From a virus: DNA of 29,270 nt. The notes under the pieces were generated by a model that worked only from the letters and a program-made list of their open reading frames with translations, was not told the DNA's origin and searched no databases. This document shows, in pieces, positions 17,360 to 28,595 of this stretch. The stretch covers positions 1 through 29,270 of IMG/VR virus record IMGVR_UViG_3300043449_002694; one strand, given 5' to 3'. The stretch's first letter is position 1. The number at the start of each line of letters is the position of its first letter. A program made the position numbers and the translations under genes.

Positions 17360-17386
17360 CGATTCTCCTTGGTTGGTTGGTGATCA
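17360..17386 (-). promoter_or_regulatory. repeated start-associated leader, leftward copy
   Basis: Reading leftward, TGATCACCAACCAACC then AAGGAGAATCG leads to the chaperone ATG. The TGA is the stop of the major tail gene, just as in the left-arm copies, but the repeat is on the opposite strand and in the late operon. Confidence 0.7.
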
Positions 17387-17791
17387 GACCCAACTAGCGA
17401 TGCTGCCGGCTTCCCAGTTGGCGGAGATGGTGCCAACTCCGTCAACGCCGGTCTCGAACGACAGGTCAAAGAACGCCGTGGTGAAGAAGTACTTGGTGGC
17501 GTTGTTGAGCCGGTCGAAGTAGACATACATCTTCCGTGCGACGCTCGATCCGATCAGGTTGGTAATCGTTGTGTCGTCAGCGTCCCAGAACCCTGCGAAT
17601 GAGCCGGAGGCCCCAGGCACGCCGGCAACGCTGATCTTGTTGGTGTCACCGAACGCGGTGGCGTCGTATCGATCCGTGGACTGATCGATCGTCCACCGGT
17701 TCTTCATACTGACGGGCGAAGCCGAACCAGTTCCTGCGGTGGTCATGTCAATGTAAATGGCGGCGTTACGGCCGGCACGTGCGGTGGGCAT
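17384..17791 (-). CDS. major tail protein
   Basis: A 135-residue tube protein. The N-terminus RAGRNAAIYIDMTTAGTG is followed by SMKNRWTIDQSTDRYDATAF, a pattern of siphophage tube subunits. A beta-rich core (GSFAGFWDADDTTITNLIGS, then KMYVYFDRLNNATKYFFTTA) and a C-terminus with GVGTISANWEAGSIASW follow. ATG at 17791 has AAAGGAACAGCA upstream. It sits between the glycosyltransferases and the chaperone, in the expected order. Confidence 0.85.
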   Translation of the reverse strand: MPTARAGRNAAIYIDMTTAGTGSASPVSMKNRWTIDQSTDRYDATAFGDTNKISVAGVPGASGSFAGFWDADDTTITNLIGSSVARKMYVYFDRLNNATKYFFTTAFFDLSFETGVDGVGTISANWEAGSIASWV

Positions 17792-17814: not shown

Positions 17815-18843
17815 TTACGGGAGCAACGCGAGGATGCGCCGCGCATGGTTGTTGAATGTTCGGTCGGCAATCGCTGCTCGTGCTTTGTTTGCCGCTTCGG
17901 TTCGTTGGTCATCGTTGTTGATTGCCCAACGGATTATTGATTCCAGTTCCTTGGGTTCGTTGATGATTGGCAACATCGGGAACAACAAGTCGGATTCGCC
18001 GCGCGATTCTCGAGCGAAGAAGGTGCCAGTTGCTGCCAACTCAACTTCTCGAGGGCCCATAGCCCAACCTTCGGCAAGGTGCGGTTTGTTCGCCTCGATC
18101 GTTCCATAACCGCGACCTGCCCTGTAAAGATTTGCTGACACCCGGCTGCGTTGATATATGCGGCTCGCTTGTTCATTGTCCAAACATTCTTCCACGTGAT
18201 GAACAAGAAATGAGCGGAGCCGCGATTCAATATCGAGGTGGGCCCAGTGCCCGCCAAGCGCTACGGACAGTCCGTCCCAATTGACCTGTTCGAAGAATTC
18301 GACGCGTGAAGGATAACCGGTACCCACAAAGGCGAAATCCCACAACGTCGGCGCTTCATTGTCGGGCCGGTGCCGCTCTGGCCTGTAACTATGCGGCACG
18401 TAGAAGGTGCGCAATCCTCGTTGCCGGTACTTGTCGAGGTTGATTGGATCGTTGACCACAACCAAGTCAGGCATCGCCGCTTCAGCAACAGCAAGTTGTT
18501 TGTCGTCTTCGTACGGAGACTCCGTATAAAGAGCAACGATTTGATGCGGCCGGTGTTTCCACAAATCCCACGTGAACTGATTGATGAAGAACCCCGAAAT
18601 GACAATCACAACATCGGGCATGAATTCGTAACACTTAGCCTCCAAATGTTTGTTGACCATTTGGATTGCTTGTTCGGTGTCGTAATGCCGTCCGTCAATT
18701 TCCACGTTGGTGTAGAACGCCAGCCGGTCGTTCAACTCGAAACCACGCACCTCGTGGCCCAATGCGGCAAAGGCTTCCGCATAGCCGGAATACACATCGG
18801 CAACCGAGAATTCAGGGCCGGGGTGCACCAACAAGATTCTCAT
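17815..18843 (-). CDS. CgeB-like glycosyltransferase (GT-B fold)
   Basis: A 342-residue protein with a Rossmann-like start, MRILLVHPGPEFSVADVYSG, then EAFAALGHEVRGFELND. The pattern continues with PDVVIVISGFFINQFTWDLW and PDLVVVNDPINLDKYRQRGL. The C-terminal part, EGWAMGPREVELAATGTFFA followed by RESRGESDLLFP, matches the donor-binding region of CgeB-type glycosyltransferases. It should transfer a sugar from a nucleotide-sugar; acceptor unknown. The ATG overlaps the preceding GT2 stop (ATGA), so the two are coupled. An in-frame extension to 18900 lies inside that gene and is rejected. It lies directly before the major tail gene. Confidence 0.88.
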   Translation of the reverse strand: MRILLVHPGPEFSVADVYSGYAEAFAALGHEVRGFELNDRLAFYTNVEIDGRHYDTEQAIQMVNKHLEAKCYEFMPDVVIVISGFFINQFTWDLWKHRPHQIVALYTESPYEDDKQLAVAEAAMPDLVVVNDPINLDKYRQRGLRTFYVPHSYRPERHRPDNEAPTLWDFAFVGTGYPSRVEFFEQVNWDGLSVALGGHWAHLDIESRLRSFLVHHVEECLDNEQASRIYQRSRVSANLYRAGRGYGTIEANKPHLAEGWAMGPREVELAATGTFFARESRGESDLLFPMLPIINEPKELESIIRWAINNDDQRTEAANKARAAIADRTFNNHARRILALLP

Positions 18844-19391
18844 ACTGAACGATGCTGCCAATCGCCCATGCGATATGTCCACGTTGCAATCGGTATGCAC
18901 AAGAACCTAGCGCCGCTCTCGAGAGCACGCAGCCAGAAATCCCAATCCTCATGCCGTGTGGTGTCTAGATGGTCGTCGTGTTTGTAGCCGCCAAGTTCGT
19001 GGAACAAGGTGGTACGGATTGCTGCACACGACGGAATGAAGTTGTCGGTCTGCAACCGAGTTGCATCGAATGGGACAGCAAAGCGATTGCGTGCCATTCG
19101 ACCCTCGACTGCGCACCACGTGTACACGATGTCCGCCGTGTTGTTCTTCAAGAACGGTTTGATTACTTCGAAATGATCCGCTTCGAGCAGGTCGTCATCG
19201 TCCAATCGGAACAACCATTCCGTTTGCACACGTTGTGCCAGACCGTTCAAGACTTTCGCCGGGCCTTGCCGGTCGTGATCAAACCCAACGTGCCAGCCAG
19301 CCGGCGCAAGCGTTTGTGCCGCTATCGATTGCGCACAATCGGCAAACAGCGCTCGTCGTTCCGGCAACGTAGCCGTAATCACTTCAATCAT
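18840..19391 (-). CDS. GT2-type glycosyltransferase (GT-A fold)
   Basis: A 183-residue short family-2 transferase. It opens with IEVITATLPERRALFADCAQ and continues to the metal-binding EWLFRLDDDDLLEADHF (DDDD at about 64-67). The acceptor-side motif THEDWDFWLRALE-like region occurs as RHEDWDFWLRALESG (about residues 146-160), with ED as likely catalytic pair. It is shorter than most GT2 enzymes, ending soon after this motif. The ATG at 19391 overlaps the tail terminator stop (ATGA); a TTG at 19400 is the alternative. It is coupled to the CgeB-like gene, which suggests successive sugar additions. Confidence 0.9.
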   Translation of the reverse strand: MIEVITATLPERRALFADCAQSIAAQTLAPAGWHVGFDHDRQGPAKVLNGLAQRVQTEWLFRLDDDDLLEADHFEVIKPFLKNNTADIVYTWCAVEGRMARNRFAVPFDATRLQTDNFIPSCAAIRTTLFHELGGYKHDDHLDTTRHEDWDFWLRALESGARFLCIPIATWTYRMGDWQHRSV

Positions 19392-19786
19392 TGGGCCCAA
19401 ACATCAACGGACAACTCCGCTGAGTAGTACCGCGTCGTGTCACCCATGACTCCATAGGACCGCATTTCAACAACTTGTGCGTACTGGCACTGTCCGCCCA
19501 AGGTCGGATCGTCCTCGATTGCCTTTGCAATTGACTGGTTGCCTTCGTCCGCTACGTACTCGTCAAGCAGCCGCTGGCCGCCTTCTGCGTTGATCGACGC
19601 TGCCAGAACATGAATCGTGACGCGCACGTTGGCGGCGCCGTCGAAAGTTTGGCCGTACCGTATTGATTCGGGCACGAGGATTGCGCATGGAACTTGTGGC
19701 GACTCAGGCACCGTGGGATAAATGCGCAGGTTGGGGATTGCATGCAGCGCATTAGCCAACCCGGTGCGCACCTCTTGAAGATTCAT
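19388..19786 (-). CDS. tail terminator / head-tail completion-like protein (132 aa)
   Basis: Starts with an ATGA overlap on the connector stop. The N-terminal helix (LQEVRTGLANALHAIPNLRI) and the later strands (RVTIHVLAASINAEGGQRLL, then the end SAELSVDVWAQ) fit tail-terminator-type proteins that cap the tail tube and meet the head connector. The gene stands between the connector and the glycosyltransferase pair. The assignment rests on position and fold-like pattern. Confidence 0.68.
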   Translation of the reverse strand: MNLQEVRTGLANALHAIPNLRIYPTVPESPQVPCAILVPESIRYGQTFDGAANVRVTIHVLAASINAEGGQRLLDEYVADEGNQSIAKAIEDDPTLGGQCQYAQVVEMRSYGVMGDTTRYYSAELSVDVWAQ

Positions 19787-20400
19787 GCGACAAAGAACCT
19801 TGTGGATGCAACGTATGGCCTCAACATTTGCATGACGGCCGGGTCTTCACGAATGCGTGCCGGTCCCCATCCGTCCAGGCCTACATAGCCGCCGGTCAGA
19901 CTTTCGGGACGCTTGAACAAATCTTTGGCAATCAACAGCGTTGCCATTTGAATTGCGTCGGGCACGGATGCCCATCCCCATTTCGCGGTGACTTTGATGG
20001 TGCCACGCAACCCGTCTGGCGGCCACGTCTTGTTGCCGACGGCTGCCAGTTCGACATACGGCCATGGCAATCCGTCCATGATTCCGTTGATCGGGCCCGC
20101 TACAAAGTCGGTGGTGATTGTCCAACTTTCTTCCCATGTTCCATCATCGCCGGGGTCGGCCGCCACAACGAGGCCGGTCGTAGTCCAGAAGTCGTCAATA
20201 CGAACAACGGCCGCTGTGTCCCGGTTGTAATAACGATCCGTTGCCGCGGTGTCTTTGTAGAACCGACGCCCGCAATGCGCATCGACTTGCCGCGAGGCTG
20301 TCTCAATCGATCGTTCAATGGTTGCCTGTTGAACGGTGCTTGTGTCGCCAATGGCATCACGAAATGTTCGCTCGCTGATGTAACCATTAGTGATTGCCAC
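19783..20400 (-). CDS. head-tail connector (HK97 gp6-like) protein
   Basis: A 205-residue protein. The N-terminal helices (AIGDTSTVQQATIERSIETA, then SRQVDAHCGRRFY) and the later segment IKVTAKWGWASVPDAIQMAT followed by LLIAKDLFKR are typical of gp6-like connectors, which form a ring below the portal. A GTG at 20400 is used, with AAAGGAGAGCATT just upstream. The 113 bases before it (20401-20513) hold no gene; they contain a short CCCGC/GCGGG hairpin (20446-20458) and a direct repeat TTGATC. Confidence 0.87.
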   Translation of the reverse strand: MAITNGYISERTFRDAIGDTSTVQQATIERSIETASRQVDAHCGRRFYKDTAATDRYYNRDTAAVVRIDDFWTTTGLVVAADPGDDGTWEESWTITTDFVAGPINGIMDGLPWPYVELAAVGNKTWPPDGLRGTIKVTAKWGWASVPDAIQMATLLIAKDLFKRPESLTGGYVGLDGWGPARIREDPAVMQMLRPYVASTRFFVA

Positions 20401-20513
20401 AATGCTCTCCTTTCAACTTGAACATGATGAGCCCCTCCCACCATCCCCGCCATGCGGGATCAAGCGATCAATGATGCGCTAATCCGCAAAGCATGGCTCA
20501 CCAGTTCATGCGC

Positions 20514-21281
20514 TTATGCGTCGATTTCGCCTCGCACTCGAGCAAGTTCCTGTTGTGCATCCCAAGTTTCCTCAGTCAGGAAGATGCCGCCTTTGTCGTG
20601 TGATGTCTTGACCGCCGTGTTGACGTAGGCGGGACAATCAATGCCGGCAACACGAACGAAGAAGGAGAAATCTTCTCCGAATGGATCGTTTCGTTTCGGG
20701 TGAGTGACCTGGCTGAACCAATGCGGCCCGTACTGCTCTCGAATCTTCTCCAACACGCGTCGGTGAACAACAAAGAAAGCGGCACCACTGGCCGCAACTT
20801 TGACCATTGCGTTGCGCGGATAGTCAGTAATGACTTGGAAGCCGGCTTCGTCATCATTCTCGACCCATCGATAAATCGTTGGGCAGTGCCGATAGATTTC
20901 CGCTTGAGTTTCCCAGTCGGTCTCGCCGCCTTTCTTCAACGCAAAGGCAAGACCTCCAACAATGGGCCGCTCGTTCGCATCAGCGGAAAGAAGCAGGCTT
21001 GCTACTGCATCATGAGCGAAACCCATATCGGCGTCGCAGAACGCCAACCATTCGCTGTTGTCCTCGAGAAAGTTTGCAACAACGTCGTTGCGGCCTCGAA
21101 CTATTTGGCCTGATCCAACACGTTGCGCGAGCACCTTCGGTGCCCGCCCTGTTCGCCCAATTTCGTACGCCATCATCCGCGCAAATGAGAATGCGAACGA
21201 GGCGCTCACTACACCGGGGTGGATGTAGGCAAAGGTGATCGACGGGTGCCGAAGCCTTGCCGGCTTGGTCCGTTTGCTCAC
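20514..21281 (-). CDS. GT-A type glycosyltransferase
   Basis: A 255-residue protein with a GTG start overlapping the preceding stop (GTGA). After PSITFAYIHPGVVSASFAFS comes GSGQIVRGRNDVVANFLED and the metal-binding DxD in WLAFCDADMGF (DAD at about 83-85), which identifies a GT-A nucleotide-sugar fold. A later acceptor-side region contains GAAFFVVHRRVLEKI and DPFGEDFSFFVRVAG, with ED as the probable base. This enzyme is close in type to transferases placed among structural genes of some actinobacteriophages. Sugar and acceptor are unknown; a virion protein is a reasonable acceptor because the gene lies next to capsid and connector genes. Confidence 0.9.
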   Translation of the reverse strand: MSKRTKPARLRHPSITFAYIHPGVVSASFAFSFARMMAYEIGRTGRAPKVLAQRVGSGQIVRGRNDVVANFLEDNSEWLAFCDADMGFAHDAVASLLLSADANERPIVGGLAFALKKGGETDWETQAEIYRHCPTIYRWVENDDEAGFQVITDYPRNAMVKVAASGAAFFVVHRRVLEKIREQYGPHWFSQVTHPKRNDPFGEDFSFFVRVAGIDCPAYVNTAVKTSHDKGGIFLTEETWDAQQELARVRGEIDA

Positions 21282-21508
21282 GAGTCCGTCCGTGTTGCCT
21301 TACCGGCGTTGAGTCGCACGTTGCGACGCTCGCCTGGCATTGCCGTTGCGTCTTCGATGTCAGACTCGAACGCCCATTTGTAAGCCCGCACCAACGGATC
21401 GTTGGCGTCGTAGGCGTCGTTTGCTTTGAGAATGACGTGCGCCCCGAATGCTTCGGGGTGCTGCACCGATACGGCGACGATGTCTGCTTTCACACGAACG
21501 ATTGCCAT
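21278..21508 (-). CDS. small hypothetical protein after the capsid gene (76 aa)
   Basis: The ATG at 21508 has the excellent AAGGAGAAGAA just upstream, so a longer frame to 21562, which crosses the hairpin, is rejected. It begins AIVRVKADIVAVSVQHPEAF, then GAHVILKANDAYDANDPLVR. A helical AYKWAFESDIEDA follows. Small proteins here may be head decoration or completion factors; no family is recognised. It overlaps the glycosyltransferase as GTGA. Confidence 0.68.
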   Translation of the reverse strand: MAIVRVKADIVAVSVQHPEAFGAHVILKANDAYDANDPLVRAYKWAFESDIEDATAMPGERRNVRLNAGKATRTDS

Positions 21509-21529
21509 TTCTTCTCCTTGGTAGAGCGA

Positions 21530-21566
21530 GAGGGTGACGACTGCCAAGGAATCAGCCGTCACCCTC
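21530..21566 (-). terminator. hairpin after the major capsid gene
   Basis: GAGGGTGACG (21530-21539) and CGTCACCCTC (21557-21566) form a perfect 10-bp stem; the 17-base loop can add a CTG/CAG pair. It sits between the double TAG stop of the capsid gene and the Shine-Dalgarno of the next gene. No U-tract follows, so partial termination or protection of the capsid message is more likely than complete termination. Confidence 0.65.
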
Positions 21567-21587: not shown

Positions 21588-22949
21588 CTAGGCGGAAGTC
21601 TTGTCCACGAGCAGTCGGAAGGCTGCATCAACGAGCGAGTCAGACCCGCCGCGCCAGTGCATCAGCCAGCCCGAACGACCGTCGGGAAGGTTGTTCGCCG
21701 TGTTGAGCAGGAACGGGATCGGCTGAATCACCGTCGAACCCGGCTTGTCAACGATCAGGAAGTTCGAGAAATCACCGAACATGATTTCCGAATCCTTGAC
21801 GGTCGTGGTCTGCGTGGACGGCGCCTCGTCCGACTCGACAACGGGCCGGCCCAGCAGCGTGCCACTGGTGCCCTGCGTCAGGTCGGTAGTGAACGACGCC
21901 GACACGGCCGTGCCCAAGTCCTTGATGGCGAGGGCGTACCGCGGGTGCATGACCCACGTGGCGTTGGTCCGGAACCTGACGGGCAGGTTGTAATAGATCG
22001 TATCCAAGTCAACAAGCCCGATTGCGGCGGCAGTCGTGGAAACAATCTGCTGGGATGCACCGATGGCGGTGAAGATGCCGGTCGGCTGCGACGAACCCGA
22101 ACCGGTGGCGTGCGCCGCCGCCTCGAGCCGGTCACGAGCGTCGGTGAACATGCGCAGCACGTCGCTCTCGAGACCGGCGATGTCCTCGAACGCCTCCGTC
22201 GAAGCCTGCACGAACGCCTGCGCCTTGTACACGGGAACGCTGACCGCCGAGAAGGTCGGGCTGTCGTCCGAAACCTCAGCAAGTTCGGCGTCCCACGATG
22301 CCGTAACGCCGGCCGACGTGACACCGTTCCACACGTTGCCGCTGGTCAGCGTGACAACGCGAGCGATGCGACGCATCACGTTGCTCGAACCGTTGTTGGT
22401 GATGATCACCGTCGGGTCGAGGAAGGTGGGGACGAGCACGCCGCCCTGCGACGCCGTGCCGACTGCAACCGCGGCCCGCTCCTCGTTGTCGAGGTAGGCG
22501 CCAGCGCCCACCATCAACTTCTGGAAGGCAGACCGGTATGCGTCGGATGAACGGACAACGAGTTGCCGAACCCACGCCTGGTCGGACGCGTGGCGCTTGG
22601 CAAGAACGCGAACCTGCTCGATATTGTCTTCGCCAACCTGGGCCTCGACGGCGGCGGTGAGCGCATCGGCAAGTTGCGTGCGGGTGCTGGTGCGGTCCTC
22701 GACCACCTCGAGCGGATCGCTCTTACGGATCACCTGGAGGCTGGGCGCCGGCGTCGTCGCAACCGTCAGGTGCGGGAACTGCGCGTTGCGTTCGATTGCG
22801 GCGTGCCGATCCGCGAGCGCAACGAGGCGCTCACGCTCTGCAATGCCGGCGTCGAACGCGTCCTGCTCCTCAGACTGGCCGCGCTCCGCAATATCGCGAA
22901 GGCACGCATCGAGGTATTCGACCTCGCTGCGCAACTGGTCAAGATTCAT
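21588..22949 (-). CDS. HK97-fold major capsid protein
   Basis: A 453-residue protein. The N-terminal third (to about residue 130) is charged and coiled-coil-like (LDQLRSEVEYLDACLRDIAE and similar), the delta/scaffold part that the protease removes. The mature part begins near the SDAYRSAFQKLMVGAGAYL region, with typical capsid stretches GGVLVPTFLDPTVIITNNGS, GSGSSQPTGIFTAIG and TWVMHPRYALAIKDL. It ends with TAG TAG. The start overlaps the protease gene by 11 bases. Confidence 0.95.
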   Translation of the reverse strand: MNLDQLRSEVEYLDACLRDIAERGQSEEQDAFDAGIAERERLVALADRHAAIERNAQFPHLTVATTPAPSLQVIRKSDPLEVVEDRTSTRTQLADALTAAVEAQVGEDNIEQVRVLAKRHASDQAWVRQLVVRSSDAYRSAFQKLMVGAGAYLDNEERAAVAVGTASQGGVLVPTFLDPTVIITNNGSSNVMRRIARVVTLTSGNVWNGVTSAGVTASWDAELAEVSDDSPTFSAVSVPVYKAQAFVQASTEAFEDIAGLESDVLRMFTDARDRLEAAAHATGSGSSQPTGIFTAIGASQQIVSTTAAAIGLVDLDTIYYNLPVRFRTNATWVMHPRYALAIKDLGTAVSASFTTDLTQGTSGTLLGRPVVESDEAPSTQTTTVKDSEIMFGDFSNFLIVDKPGSTVIQPIPFLLNTANNLPDGRSGWLMHWRGGSDSLVDAAFRLLVDKTSA

Positions 22950-27380: not shown

Positions 27381-28595
27381 TTACGTCGGAATCATTGATC
27401 GTCCATGCGCTTCTGCAAGCAGTTGCAACGCTGCGGTTCGGTCTTCGTATGCGGGCCCGCAGTACTCGAACACGGCGCATGGTCTCGAGCCGTGCCGCCA
27501 GTTATCGACAAGTTGCGCATTGGGCCCGTGGACTATGCCTTTGGCGTTGCCTGCCTTCTGCTGTCGCAACGTGGTGTTCTTGACTGCGCTTGCCGTGTAG
27601 CCGGCACCATAACCGGGTCGTTGTTTCAACGACCAACGCCGTGATCGATCGAACGCATGAATCAAAGGCGGATGGGCGGGGTACGTGCGCAACCGTTTGT
27701 TTGCATGCCGGTATGAAGCACCCAATCCGTCCAACAATACAAATGCCAACCCAAGCCCTTGCCAGTCCGGCAACGTCACCACCCGCGACACACCCATGAT
27801 GTTCTTTGTCTTTGGGTGCGGACGATGCAACAAGCCGGCAAAGGCGACTGGTTGATCATCCACAAACGCCGCATAGCAACGAGCCGCTCGATGAAGGTGA
27901 GCAGTCAAATAGTGAAACGGAGCGAACAACTGCCACGTGGAATACGGGACCGTTCGGATTTCAACGTCGAGCCTGGGGCGGGGTTGAACCGACCTCCAGG
28001 CAAAGGTTCGTTGTGCCACGTCAATCACCCAATCGGGTTGCAACCATTCGAGTACGTCGTAATGGCACGTGACAGCAACAAACTGGCGGTTGTTCTTCCT
28101 GATCCATTTCTGGATTGCATTGGCGCCAATCTTGGCAACCTGTCGATCAACAACACTTGTGAATTCGTCAACAACAATTGGTTTGTCTGCCGGCGTGTCG
28201 AGTAGCAGCCGTGCCAACGTCACCCGAAACTGTTCGCCGGTTGAGAGCACGTGGTACGGCCGCAACCATGCGGGAATCGTGTTGAACCCAACGGCGCTGC
28301 ACGCCTGCGCCACGTCGTTGACCGAATGGGCAGCATCGAAATCATCGATGACGCTGGCGTCAGTCCATTCGCATGTTGCCGGTTCGCCAAAGGCCGCGCG
28401 GGCAATTGTTGATTTGCCTGCACCTGATGGCCCGACGATCAAACCGACATTCCACGGTTTCGTTTCCCACGCGGCGTCGATGCGCCATTCCAACTTGTGG
28501 CGTTCTTCGGGCGGCACGTCAAACATTGACGACAACTGGCGTGCCCTCGCCGTGTTTGATACCGGCGTATCAACGGAAACTTCGATCAACGGCAC
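27381..28595 (-). CDS. ABC-type ATPase fused to a GNAT-like acyltransferase domain
   Basis: A 404-residue fusion. The N-terminal half is a soluble ABC ATPase: Walker A GPSGAGKST (55-63), signature LSTGEQ (117-122), Walker B PIVVDEF (139-145) and H-loop TCHYD (H178). There are no membrane helices. The second half has a GNAT-like acyl-CoA site, VSRVVTLPDWQGLGLAFVLL (269-288), with QGLGLA as the pyrophosphate loop. It continues with YPAHPPLIHAFDRSRRWSLK and a basic C-terminal region. ABC-acetyltransferase fusions are known as a predicted class (COG2401-like). The Mu Mom enzyme, a GNAT-fold DNA modifier, suggests a base-modification role, but this is inferred. It lies seven bases after the ParB-like gene. 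Confidence 0.85.
   Translation of the reverse strand: MPLIEVSVDTPVSNTARARQLSSMFDVPPEERHKLEWRIDAAWETKPWNVGLIVGPSGAGKSTIARAAFGEPATCEWTDASVIDDFDAAHSVNDVAQACSAVGFNTIPAWLRPYHVLSTGEQFRVTLARLLLDTPADKPIVVDEFTSVVDRQVAKIGANAIQKWIRKNNRQFVAVTCHYDVLEWLQPDWVIDVAQRTFAWRSVQPRPRLDVEIRTVPYSTWQLFAPFHYLTAHLHRAARCYAAFVDDQPVAFAGLLHRPHPKTKNIMGVSRVVTLPDWQGLGLAFVLLDGLGASYRHANKRLRTYPAHPPLIHAFDRSRRWSLKQRPGYGAGYTASAVKNTTLRQQKAGNAKGIVHGPNAQLVDNWRHGSRPCAVFEYCGPAYEDRTAALQLLAEAHGRSMIPT

What the first reader, a model, noticed from the sequence alone, without database searches (positions are those of the whole stretch)
17815..21281. Three different glycosyltransferases embedded among head and tail genes
Seen: a GT-A enzyme (20514-21281) next to the capsid gene, and a coupled GT2/CgeB-like pair (18840-19391, 17815-18843) just before the major tail gene. 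All are in the late operon with tight overlaps. Known: some mycobacteriophages glycosylate capsid or tail proteins with enzymes encoded among structural genes. Inference: a stepwise glycan is built on the capsid or the tail tube, with the GT-A enzyme perhaps starting it and the pair extending it.
Basis: partly seen in the sequence, partly recalled or inferred. Interest (0 to 1): 0.72.

Follow-up and report, generated by a model that had tools for sequence, protein, structure and literature searches.

The report
Capsid- and tail-linked phage sugar-adding enzymes
This phage fragment carries three sugar-transferring enzymes among its head and tail genes; in hundreds of uncultured relatives one enzyme travels with the capsid gene and another with the tail-tube gene, so these phages probably coat head and tail with sugars by two separate routes.

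Summary
The three glycosyltransferase (GT) genes are real, at the stated coordinates, intact, under purifying selection and coupled by 4-nt overlaps. One small gene separates the GT-A enzyme (GTA) from the capsid gene (MCP). Comparative evidence splits the trio into two modules. GTA follows the MCP in 16/16 MCP-anchored contigs and in about 90 of 101 GTA loci; GTA and MCP distances correlate (r 0.73-0.80) but GTA and flanking genes do not. The CgeB-like enzyme lies upstream of one tail-tube (MTP) clade in 78/80 MTP-anchored loci (51/53 not seen before), and correlates with MTP (0.49) more than with the tail terminator (0.14). GTA and CgeB do not correlate (-0.23). The GT2 gene was found only where CgeB is (10/18 vs 0/22). 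GTA's modelled fold best matches STIV A197, an essential GT of a virus with a glycosylated capsid. CgeB and its MTP clade have no match in 50,697 GenBank phage records. Best explanation: two separate virion-glycosylation modules, GTA on the head and GT2/CgeB on the tail tube, not one chain. Acceptors, sugars and linkage are unproven. Virion glycosylation is known in mycobacteriophages; these enzymes and pairings appear new.

The parts
21588..22949 (-). Major capsid protein (HK97 fold), C-terminus ...LLVDKTSA
   Evidence: Pfam Phage_capsid 1.9e-38; TIGR01554 2.6e-47
21278..21562 (-). Small conserved gene p21278 between capsid and GT-A gene; weak match to head-tail connector phrog_9538
   Evidence: phrog_9538 5.6e-4; kept between MCP and GT-A in most relatives
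20514..21281 (-). GT-A glycosyltransferase, capsid module; D83xD85, E203-D204, H228 invariant
   Evidence: phrog_34859 8.4e-16; alignment of 15; AF2 model pLDDT 88.9; best structural match STIV A197, Z 19.8
20401..20513 (-). Short non-coding gap that appears to be the remnant of a polytopic membrane-protein gene present here in relatives
   Evidence: two in-order matches to the L002 gene, best E 1e-4 against a 3-kb test set; global score 3.3 SD above shuffles for L002 only
19783..20400 (-). Head-tail adaptor
   Evidence: phrog_442 5.3e-11
19388..19786 (-). Tail terminator
   Evidence: phrog_17840 4.5e-29
18840..19391 (-). Short GT2-family glycosyltransferase, accessory member of the tail module; DDDD and ED motifs kept
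   Evidence: Pfam 2.1e-6, phrog_14775 6.2e-14; alignment; found only with CgeB in GT-A-anchored loci
17815..18843 (-). CgeB-like GT-B glycosyltransferase, partner of the tail-tube gene; P264-R265-E266-x-E268 and R281-x-E283 nearly invariant
   Evidence: PF13524 2e-9; 116-sequence alignment; next to MTP in 84 of 88 evaluable CgeB loci
17384..17791 (-). Major tail (tube) protein, proposed acceptor for CgeB/GT2
   Evidence: phrog_10528 1.3e-6; profile matches solved major tail protein 8GTB at 9.3e-4

Best explanation
The window carries two separate virion-glycosylation modules. Module 1: the GT-A enzyme (20514-21281) transfers a sugar from a nucleotide-sugar donor to the capsid shell, most likely to the major capsid protein encoded two genes upstream. 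Module 2: the CgeB-like GT-B enzyme (17815-18843), with the short GT2 enzyme (18840-19391) as an optional partner, glycosylates the major tail-tube protein encoded 23 nt downstream; the two probably act in sequence. Both work in the cytoplasm during late expression and assembly. Shown here: intact genes, catalytic motifs, purifying selection, near-fixed linkage and co-variation with MCP and MTP respectively. Inferred: that the acceptors are these proteins, the order of action, the sugar, the residues modified and the purpose.
For: Linkage: MCP-anchored search gave GTA downstream in 16 of 16 contigs long enough to tell; GTA has MCP or p21278 directly upstream in about 90 of 101 first copies, and 9 more have the capsid protease at a fitting distance; the same order occurs in genome contigs of Nonomuraea, Acrocarpospora, Amycolatopsis and Streptomyces. 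MTP-anchored search: CgeB upstream in 78 of 80, 71 directly adjacent; among the 53 loci whose MTP had not been seen before, 51. Co-variation: GTA-MCP 0.73-0.80 vs GTA-HTC 0.09-0.18 and GTA-protease 0.22; CgeB-MTP 0.49 vs CgeB-terminator 0.14, bootstrap 95% interval of the difference 0.10-0.58; GTA-CgeB -0.23. GT2 present in 10 of 18 CgeB+ and 0 of 22 CgeB- GT-A loci. Fold: best structural match is A197 of STIV (Z 19.8, 2.1 A over 174 residues), then the protein-glycosylating enzyme LH3, mimivirus R699 and COLGALT1; A197 is an essential glycosyltransferase and the STIV coat protein is glycosylated (PMC10551542). Relatives fill the same intervals with further GTs, nucleotide-sugar epimerase, UDP-sugar dehydrogenase and methyltransferases. 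Precedent: capsid and tail-tube glycosylation in mycobacteriophages, as reported in PMC12363180.
Against: No glycan, mass shift or enzyme activity has been seen for any member. Linkage and co-variation also arise when neighbouring genes are inherited together: with only tightly spaced loci the contrasts shrink and their intervals include zero (GTA 0.52 vs 0.11, n=15; CgeB 0.24 vs 0.09, n=20). Sequences are related, so counts are not independent events. The conserved capsid tail [DN]KTSA is absent from 13 of 78 GTA-linked capsids, e.g. L066, so it cannot be the only acceptor. GTA co-variation with p21278 could not be judged (n=7). The CgeB model was too poor (pLDDT 53.8) for a fold search.
Confidence: 0.62

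Rival explanations
1. One reading: one stepwise glycan on a single virion protein, GT-A adding the first sugar and GT2/CgeB extending it.
For: All three are in one late operon with overlapping genes and co-occur in the close relatives L002-L006.
Against: GTA and CgeB distances do not correlate (-0.23) while each correlates with a different structural protein; in GT-A-anchored loci GTA occurs without CgeB in 22 of 40, and several CgeB loci lack GTA.
Confidence: 0.13
2. The enzymes modify a host surface polymer to alter the receptor or block superinfection, as GtrB/GtrC-type conversion enzymes do.
For: Many phage GTs are annotated this way; the GT2 weakly matches a GtrB-like family (0.051); this role is proposed for freshwater actinophage GTs (PMC10202952).
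Against: Near-fixed placement and co-variation with MCP and MTP are not expected for host-directed enzymes; no flippase-type gene was recognised beside them in the window.
Confidence: 0.1
3. The enzymes glycosylate phage DNA to protect it from nucleases.
For: Proposed for GTs of Nanopelagicales phages (PMC10202952).
Against: The genes track capsid and tail-tube proteins, and the fold matches are to protein- and polysaccharide-acting GT-A enzymes. The window is a fragment, so base-modifying genes elsewhere cannot be excluded.
Confidence: 0.05
4. CgeB, and perhaps GTA, serve mainly as assembly chaperones or structural partners of MTP and MCP, and transfer no sugar.
For: The near-obligate pairing with one MTP clade resembles a dedicated assembly factor.
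Against: Motifs expected for donor binding and catalysis are nearly invariant in all three families, and sugar-metabolism genes sit alongside in relatives.
Confidence: 0.1

Closest known systems
Virion glycosylation of mycobacteriophages Che8, Corndog and Myrna (Freeman et al. 2023, read through PMC12363180 and PMC11256854)
   Same: Phage-encoded glycosyltransferases thought to modify capsid and tail-tube proteins of tailed phages of actinobacteria.
   Different: Che8 GTs gp108-110 lie at the right genome end and none was detectably related to the window's families in the five profile comparisons run (gp108 was tested only against CgeB). Here the enzymes sit beside, and co-vary with, the structural genes.
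A197 of Sulfolobus turreted icosahedral virus
   Same: Best structural match of the GT-A enzyme (Z 19.8, 20% identity); a viral GT-A enzyme in a virus with a glycosylated coat protein (PMC10551542).
   Different: Archaeal non-tailed virus; its acceptor is also unproven; no evidence here of common descent beyond the fold.
CgeB-type / Glyco_trans_1_2 (PF13524) GT-B enzymes
   Same: C-terminal GT-B domain matches PF13524 at 2e-9, conserved glutamates.
   Different: A distinct phage family tied to one tail-tube clade; no tblastn match in 50,697 phage records.
Mimivirus R699 and collagen glycosyltransferases LH3/COLGALT1
   Same: High-ranking fold matches, protein acceptors.
   Different: About 10% sequence identity; hydroxylysine acceptors, not expected here.

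Membership tests
GT-A glycosyltransferases | GT-A fold | tested here: met
   Model pLDDT 88.9; Z 14-20 to many GT-A enzymes
GT-A glycosyltransferases | DxD metal/nucleotide-sugar motif and downstream catalytic ED and metal-binding H | tested here: met
   D83, D85, E203, D204, H228 invariant in 15 sequences; their roles assigned from knowledge of GT-A enzymes
PF13524 CgeB-like GT-B enzymes | Match above the curated Pfam cut-off | tested here: met
   38 bits vs cut-off 25
PF13524 CgeB-like GT-B enzymes | Two-domain GT-B fold | tested here: inconclusive
   Model too poor, pLDDT 53.8; no solved relative by sequence
GT2 family | Match above the curated Pfam cut-off, DDD and ED motifs | tested here: met
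   28.2 bits vs cut-off 23.3 for 18840-19391; motifs invariant
Virion glycosylation systems of mycobacteriophages | Phage-encoded GT related to the Che8 enzymes | tested here: not met
   No significant profile match in five comparisons with Che8 gp108, gp109, gp110
Virion glycosylation systems of mycobacteriophages | Sugar attached to capsid and/or tail-tube protein | not testable with these tools
   Needs mass spectrometry of virions
Gtr-type host seroconversion | GT works with a lipid carrier and flippase on host envelope glycans | tested here: inconclusive
   No flippase recognised near the genes in the window; window is a fragment

The most novel reading that the evidence does not exclude
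A large group of uncultured actinobacterial phages carries a tail-tube protein clade that cannot be made, or cannot work, without its own dedicated glycosyltransferase: an obligate CgeB-MTP enzyme-substrate pair, with a second independent pair (GTA-MCP) for the head. The nearly invariant tyrosines 13, 89, 91 and 101 of these tail-tube proteins are candidate acceptors.
Probability: 0.25. Interest if true: 0.8.

Novelty: new variant of a known kind. Interest (0 to 1): 0.62.

Why it matters
Glycosylated tailed-phage virions are known from a few mycobacteriophages. This locus points to the same kind of modification in hundreds of uncultured phage contigs (at least 469 GTA relatives and 142 CgeB relatives in IMG/VR), with each enzyme genetically tied to the protein it probably modifies. 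That makes head and tail modification separately testable and gives a simple genomic marker for virion glycosylation in environmental phages.

Tried and rejected
Single-sequence search for GT2 relatives in IMG/VR found none by tblastn; they were found only through neighbouring genes. CgeB profile against genome contigs found nothing, although a later search of genomes of the class of the Ilumatobacter MAG found one close relative. Capsid C-terminal tail as the sole acceptor: KTSA-like in 65 of 78 GTA+ and 0 of 16 GTA- capsids, but the GTA- capsids are distant, S/T content of the last five residues is similar in both groups (1.81 vs 1.63), and some GTA+ capsids lack the tail; kept only as a lead. 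MTP tyrosines as acceptors: the five MTPs without CgeB are too divergent for a fair contrast. PDB sequence searches for GTA and CgeB gave nothing significant. Freeman et al. 2023 is not in the paper library; it is cited only through papers that describe it. The Corndog record was not held under the accessions tried.

Full report
Observation. The window is a 29.3-kb virus record. Its late genes run on the - strand: ParB-like, ABC-GNAT fusion, terminases, portal, protease, capsid, small gene, GT-A enzyme, head-tail adaptor, tail terminator, GT2, CgeB-like, major tail protein, then tape measure and other tail genes. GT2 and CgeB start with ATG inside ATGA overlaps and the GT-A gene with GTG inside GTGA. 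The one correction is that a small gene (21278-21562) lies between capsid and GT-A gene.

Are they functional enzymes? The GT-A family keeps DxD, ED and H, GT2 keeps DDDD and ED, and CgeB keeps PRExE and RxE over 116 sequences. Between the two close relatives L003 and L004, dN/dS is 0.10, 0.12 and 0.09 for GT-A, GT2 and CgeB, like the tail-tube gene at 0.10. The GT-A model (pLDDT 88.9) is a GT-A fold whose best match among the chains compared is STIV A197 (Z 19.8, rmsd 2.1 over 174 residues), followed by LH3, mimivirus R699 and COLGALT1.

Where do relatives sit? I took relatives by several anchors. By capsid: 19 contigs, all 16 that run far enough have capsid, small gene and GT-A gene in that order, at 39-71% GT-A identity. 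By GT-A profile: at least 469 relatives in IMG/VR, of which 80 were fetched. By CgeB profile: at least 142, 80 fetched. Profile annotation gave 80 GT-A genes directly after the small gene, 10 more after the capsid or with an insert, and 9 with the capsid not detected but the protease at a fitting distance. CgeB lies within 150 nt of MTP in 84 loci, at a larger distance in 3, and without a detected MTP in 1. The converse test used an MTP profile: 71 of 80 loci have CgeB directly upstream and 7 more further upstream; of 53 loci whose MTP sequence was new, 51 have CgeB. The exceptions are L225, where MTP follows the capsid gene, and L228.

Co-variation. In 16 loci with all genes, capsid-GTA 0.71 and CgeB-MTP 0.66 stand out, while GTA-CgeB is -0.23, GTA-MTP -0.14 and CgeB-MCP -0.19. 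Larger sets: GTA-MCP 0.73 (n=45) and 0.80 (n=44), against 0.18 and 0.09 with the head-tail adaptor and 0.22 with the protease; CgeB-MTP 0.49 against 0.14 with the terminator (n=47, interval of the difference 0.10-0.58). Restricting to tightly packed loci weakens both contrasts, so shared inheritance of neighbours is not fully excluded. GT2 follows CgeB: 10 of 18 CgeB+ and 0 of 22 CgeB- loci, and it changes place, lying before the head-tail adaptor in L056 and others.

Neighbouring gene content. The intervals between capsid and MTP in relatives hold a methyltransferase (33 loci), a polytopic membrane protein (28), a nucleotide-sugar epimerase (10), GT4-, DXD sugar-binding-, GT2- and TOD1-type transferases, UDP-sugar dehydrogenases and an FkbM-type methyltransferase. 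This is what a glycan-building island would contain. L022 and L013 have the GT-A enzyme fused to a second, GT2-like domain (for L013 by reading the sequence only).

Hosts. GT-A relatives occur in genome contigs of Nonomuraea, Acrocarpospora, Lentzea, Amycolatopsis, Streptomyces and an Ilumatobacter MAG, mostly with the capsid context. A genome of the same class as the Ilumatobacter MAG carries both modules on one contig. Actinomycetota hosts are therefore likely; the window's own host is not known.

Comparison with the known. Capsid and tail-tube glycosylation by phage enzymes is reported for mycobacteriophages (PMC12363180, PMC11256854). The Che8 enzymes are encoded elsewhere in its genome and show no detectable relation in five profile comparisons. 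CgeB and its MTP clade have no match in 50,697 phage records, and the GT-A family only two weak ones. A paper search on CgeB in phages returned nothing relevant. I therefore file the locus as a new variant of virion glycosylation by analogy of function, not as a member of the Che8 enzyme family.

What remains inferred: that MCP and MTP are the acceptors, which sugar is used, the order of GT2 and CgeB, and the benefit to the phage. Candidate sites are the capsid C-terminal [DN]KTSA tail and MTP tyrosines 13, 89, 91 and 101; neither passed a fair control.

Noticed in passing
20401-20513: Non-coding gap with two in-order matches to a polytopic membrane-protein gene found here in relatives; looks like the scar of a deleted gene, lost separately in L006.
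   Followed up: partly
27381-28595: Fusion of an ABC-type ATPase with a GNAT acetyltransferase domain, matching a phage family of unknown function (phrog_11143, 2e-99).
   Followed up: no
L003:1437-2222 and 27 other loci: Polytopic membrane protein between GT-A gene and head-tail adaptor, no Pfam, PHROG or NCBIfam match; could be a lipid-carrier sugar transferase, but this is a guess.
   Followed up: partly
L022:5734-7314 and L022:7311-8537: GT-A enzyme fused to a second GT2 domain, followed by a UDP-glucose/GDP-mannose dehydrogenase gene.
   Followed up: partly
L225:2733-4381: Tail-tube gene placed directly after the capsid gene, one of two MTP loci without CgeB nearby.
   Followed up: no
21588-21608 (capsid C-terminus): C-terminal KTSA-like tail in 65 of 78 GTA-linked capsids and 0 of 16 others.
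   Followed up: partly
L267 (G019:C107): A genome of the class of the Ilumatobacter MAG carries portal-protease-capsid-GTA and CgeB-MTP on one contig.
   Followed up: partly
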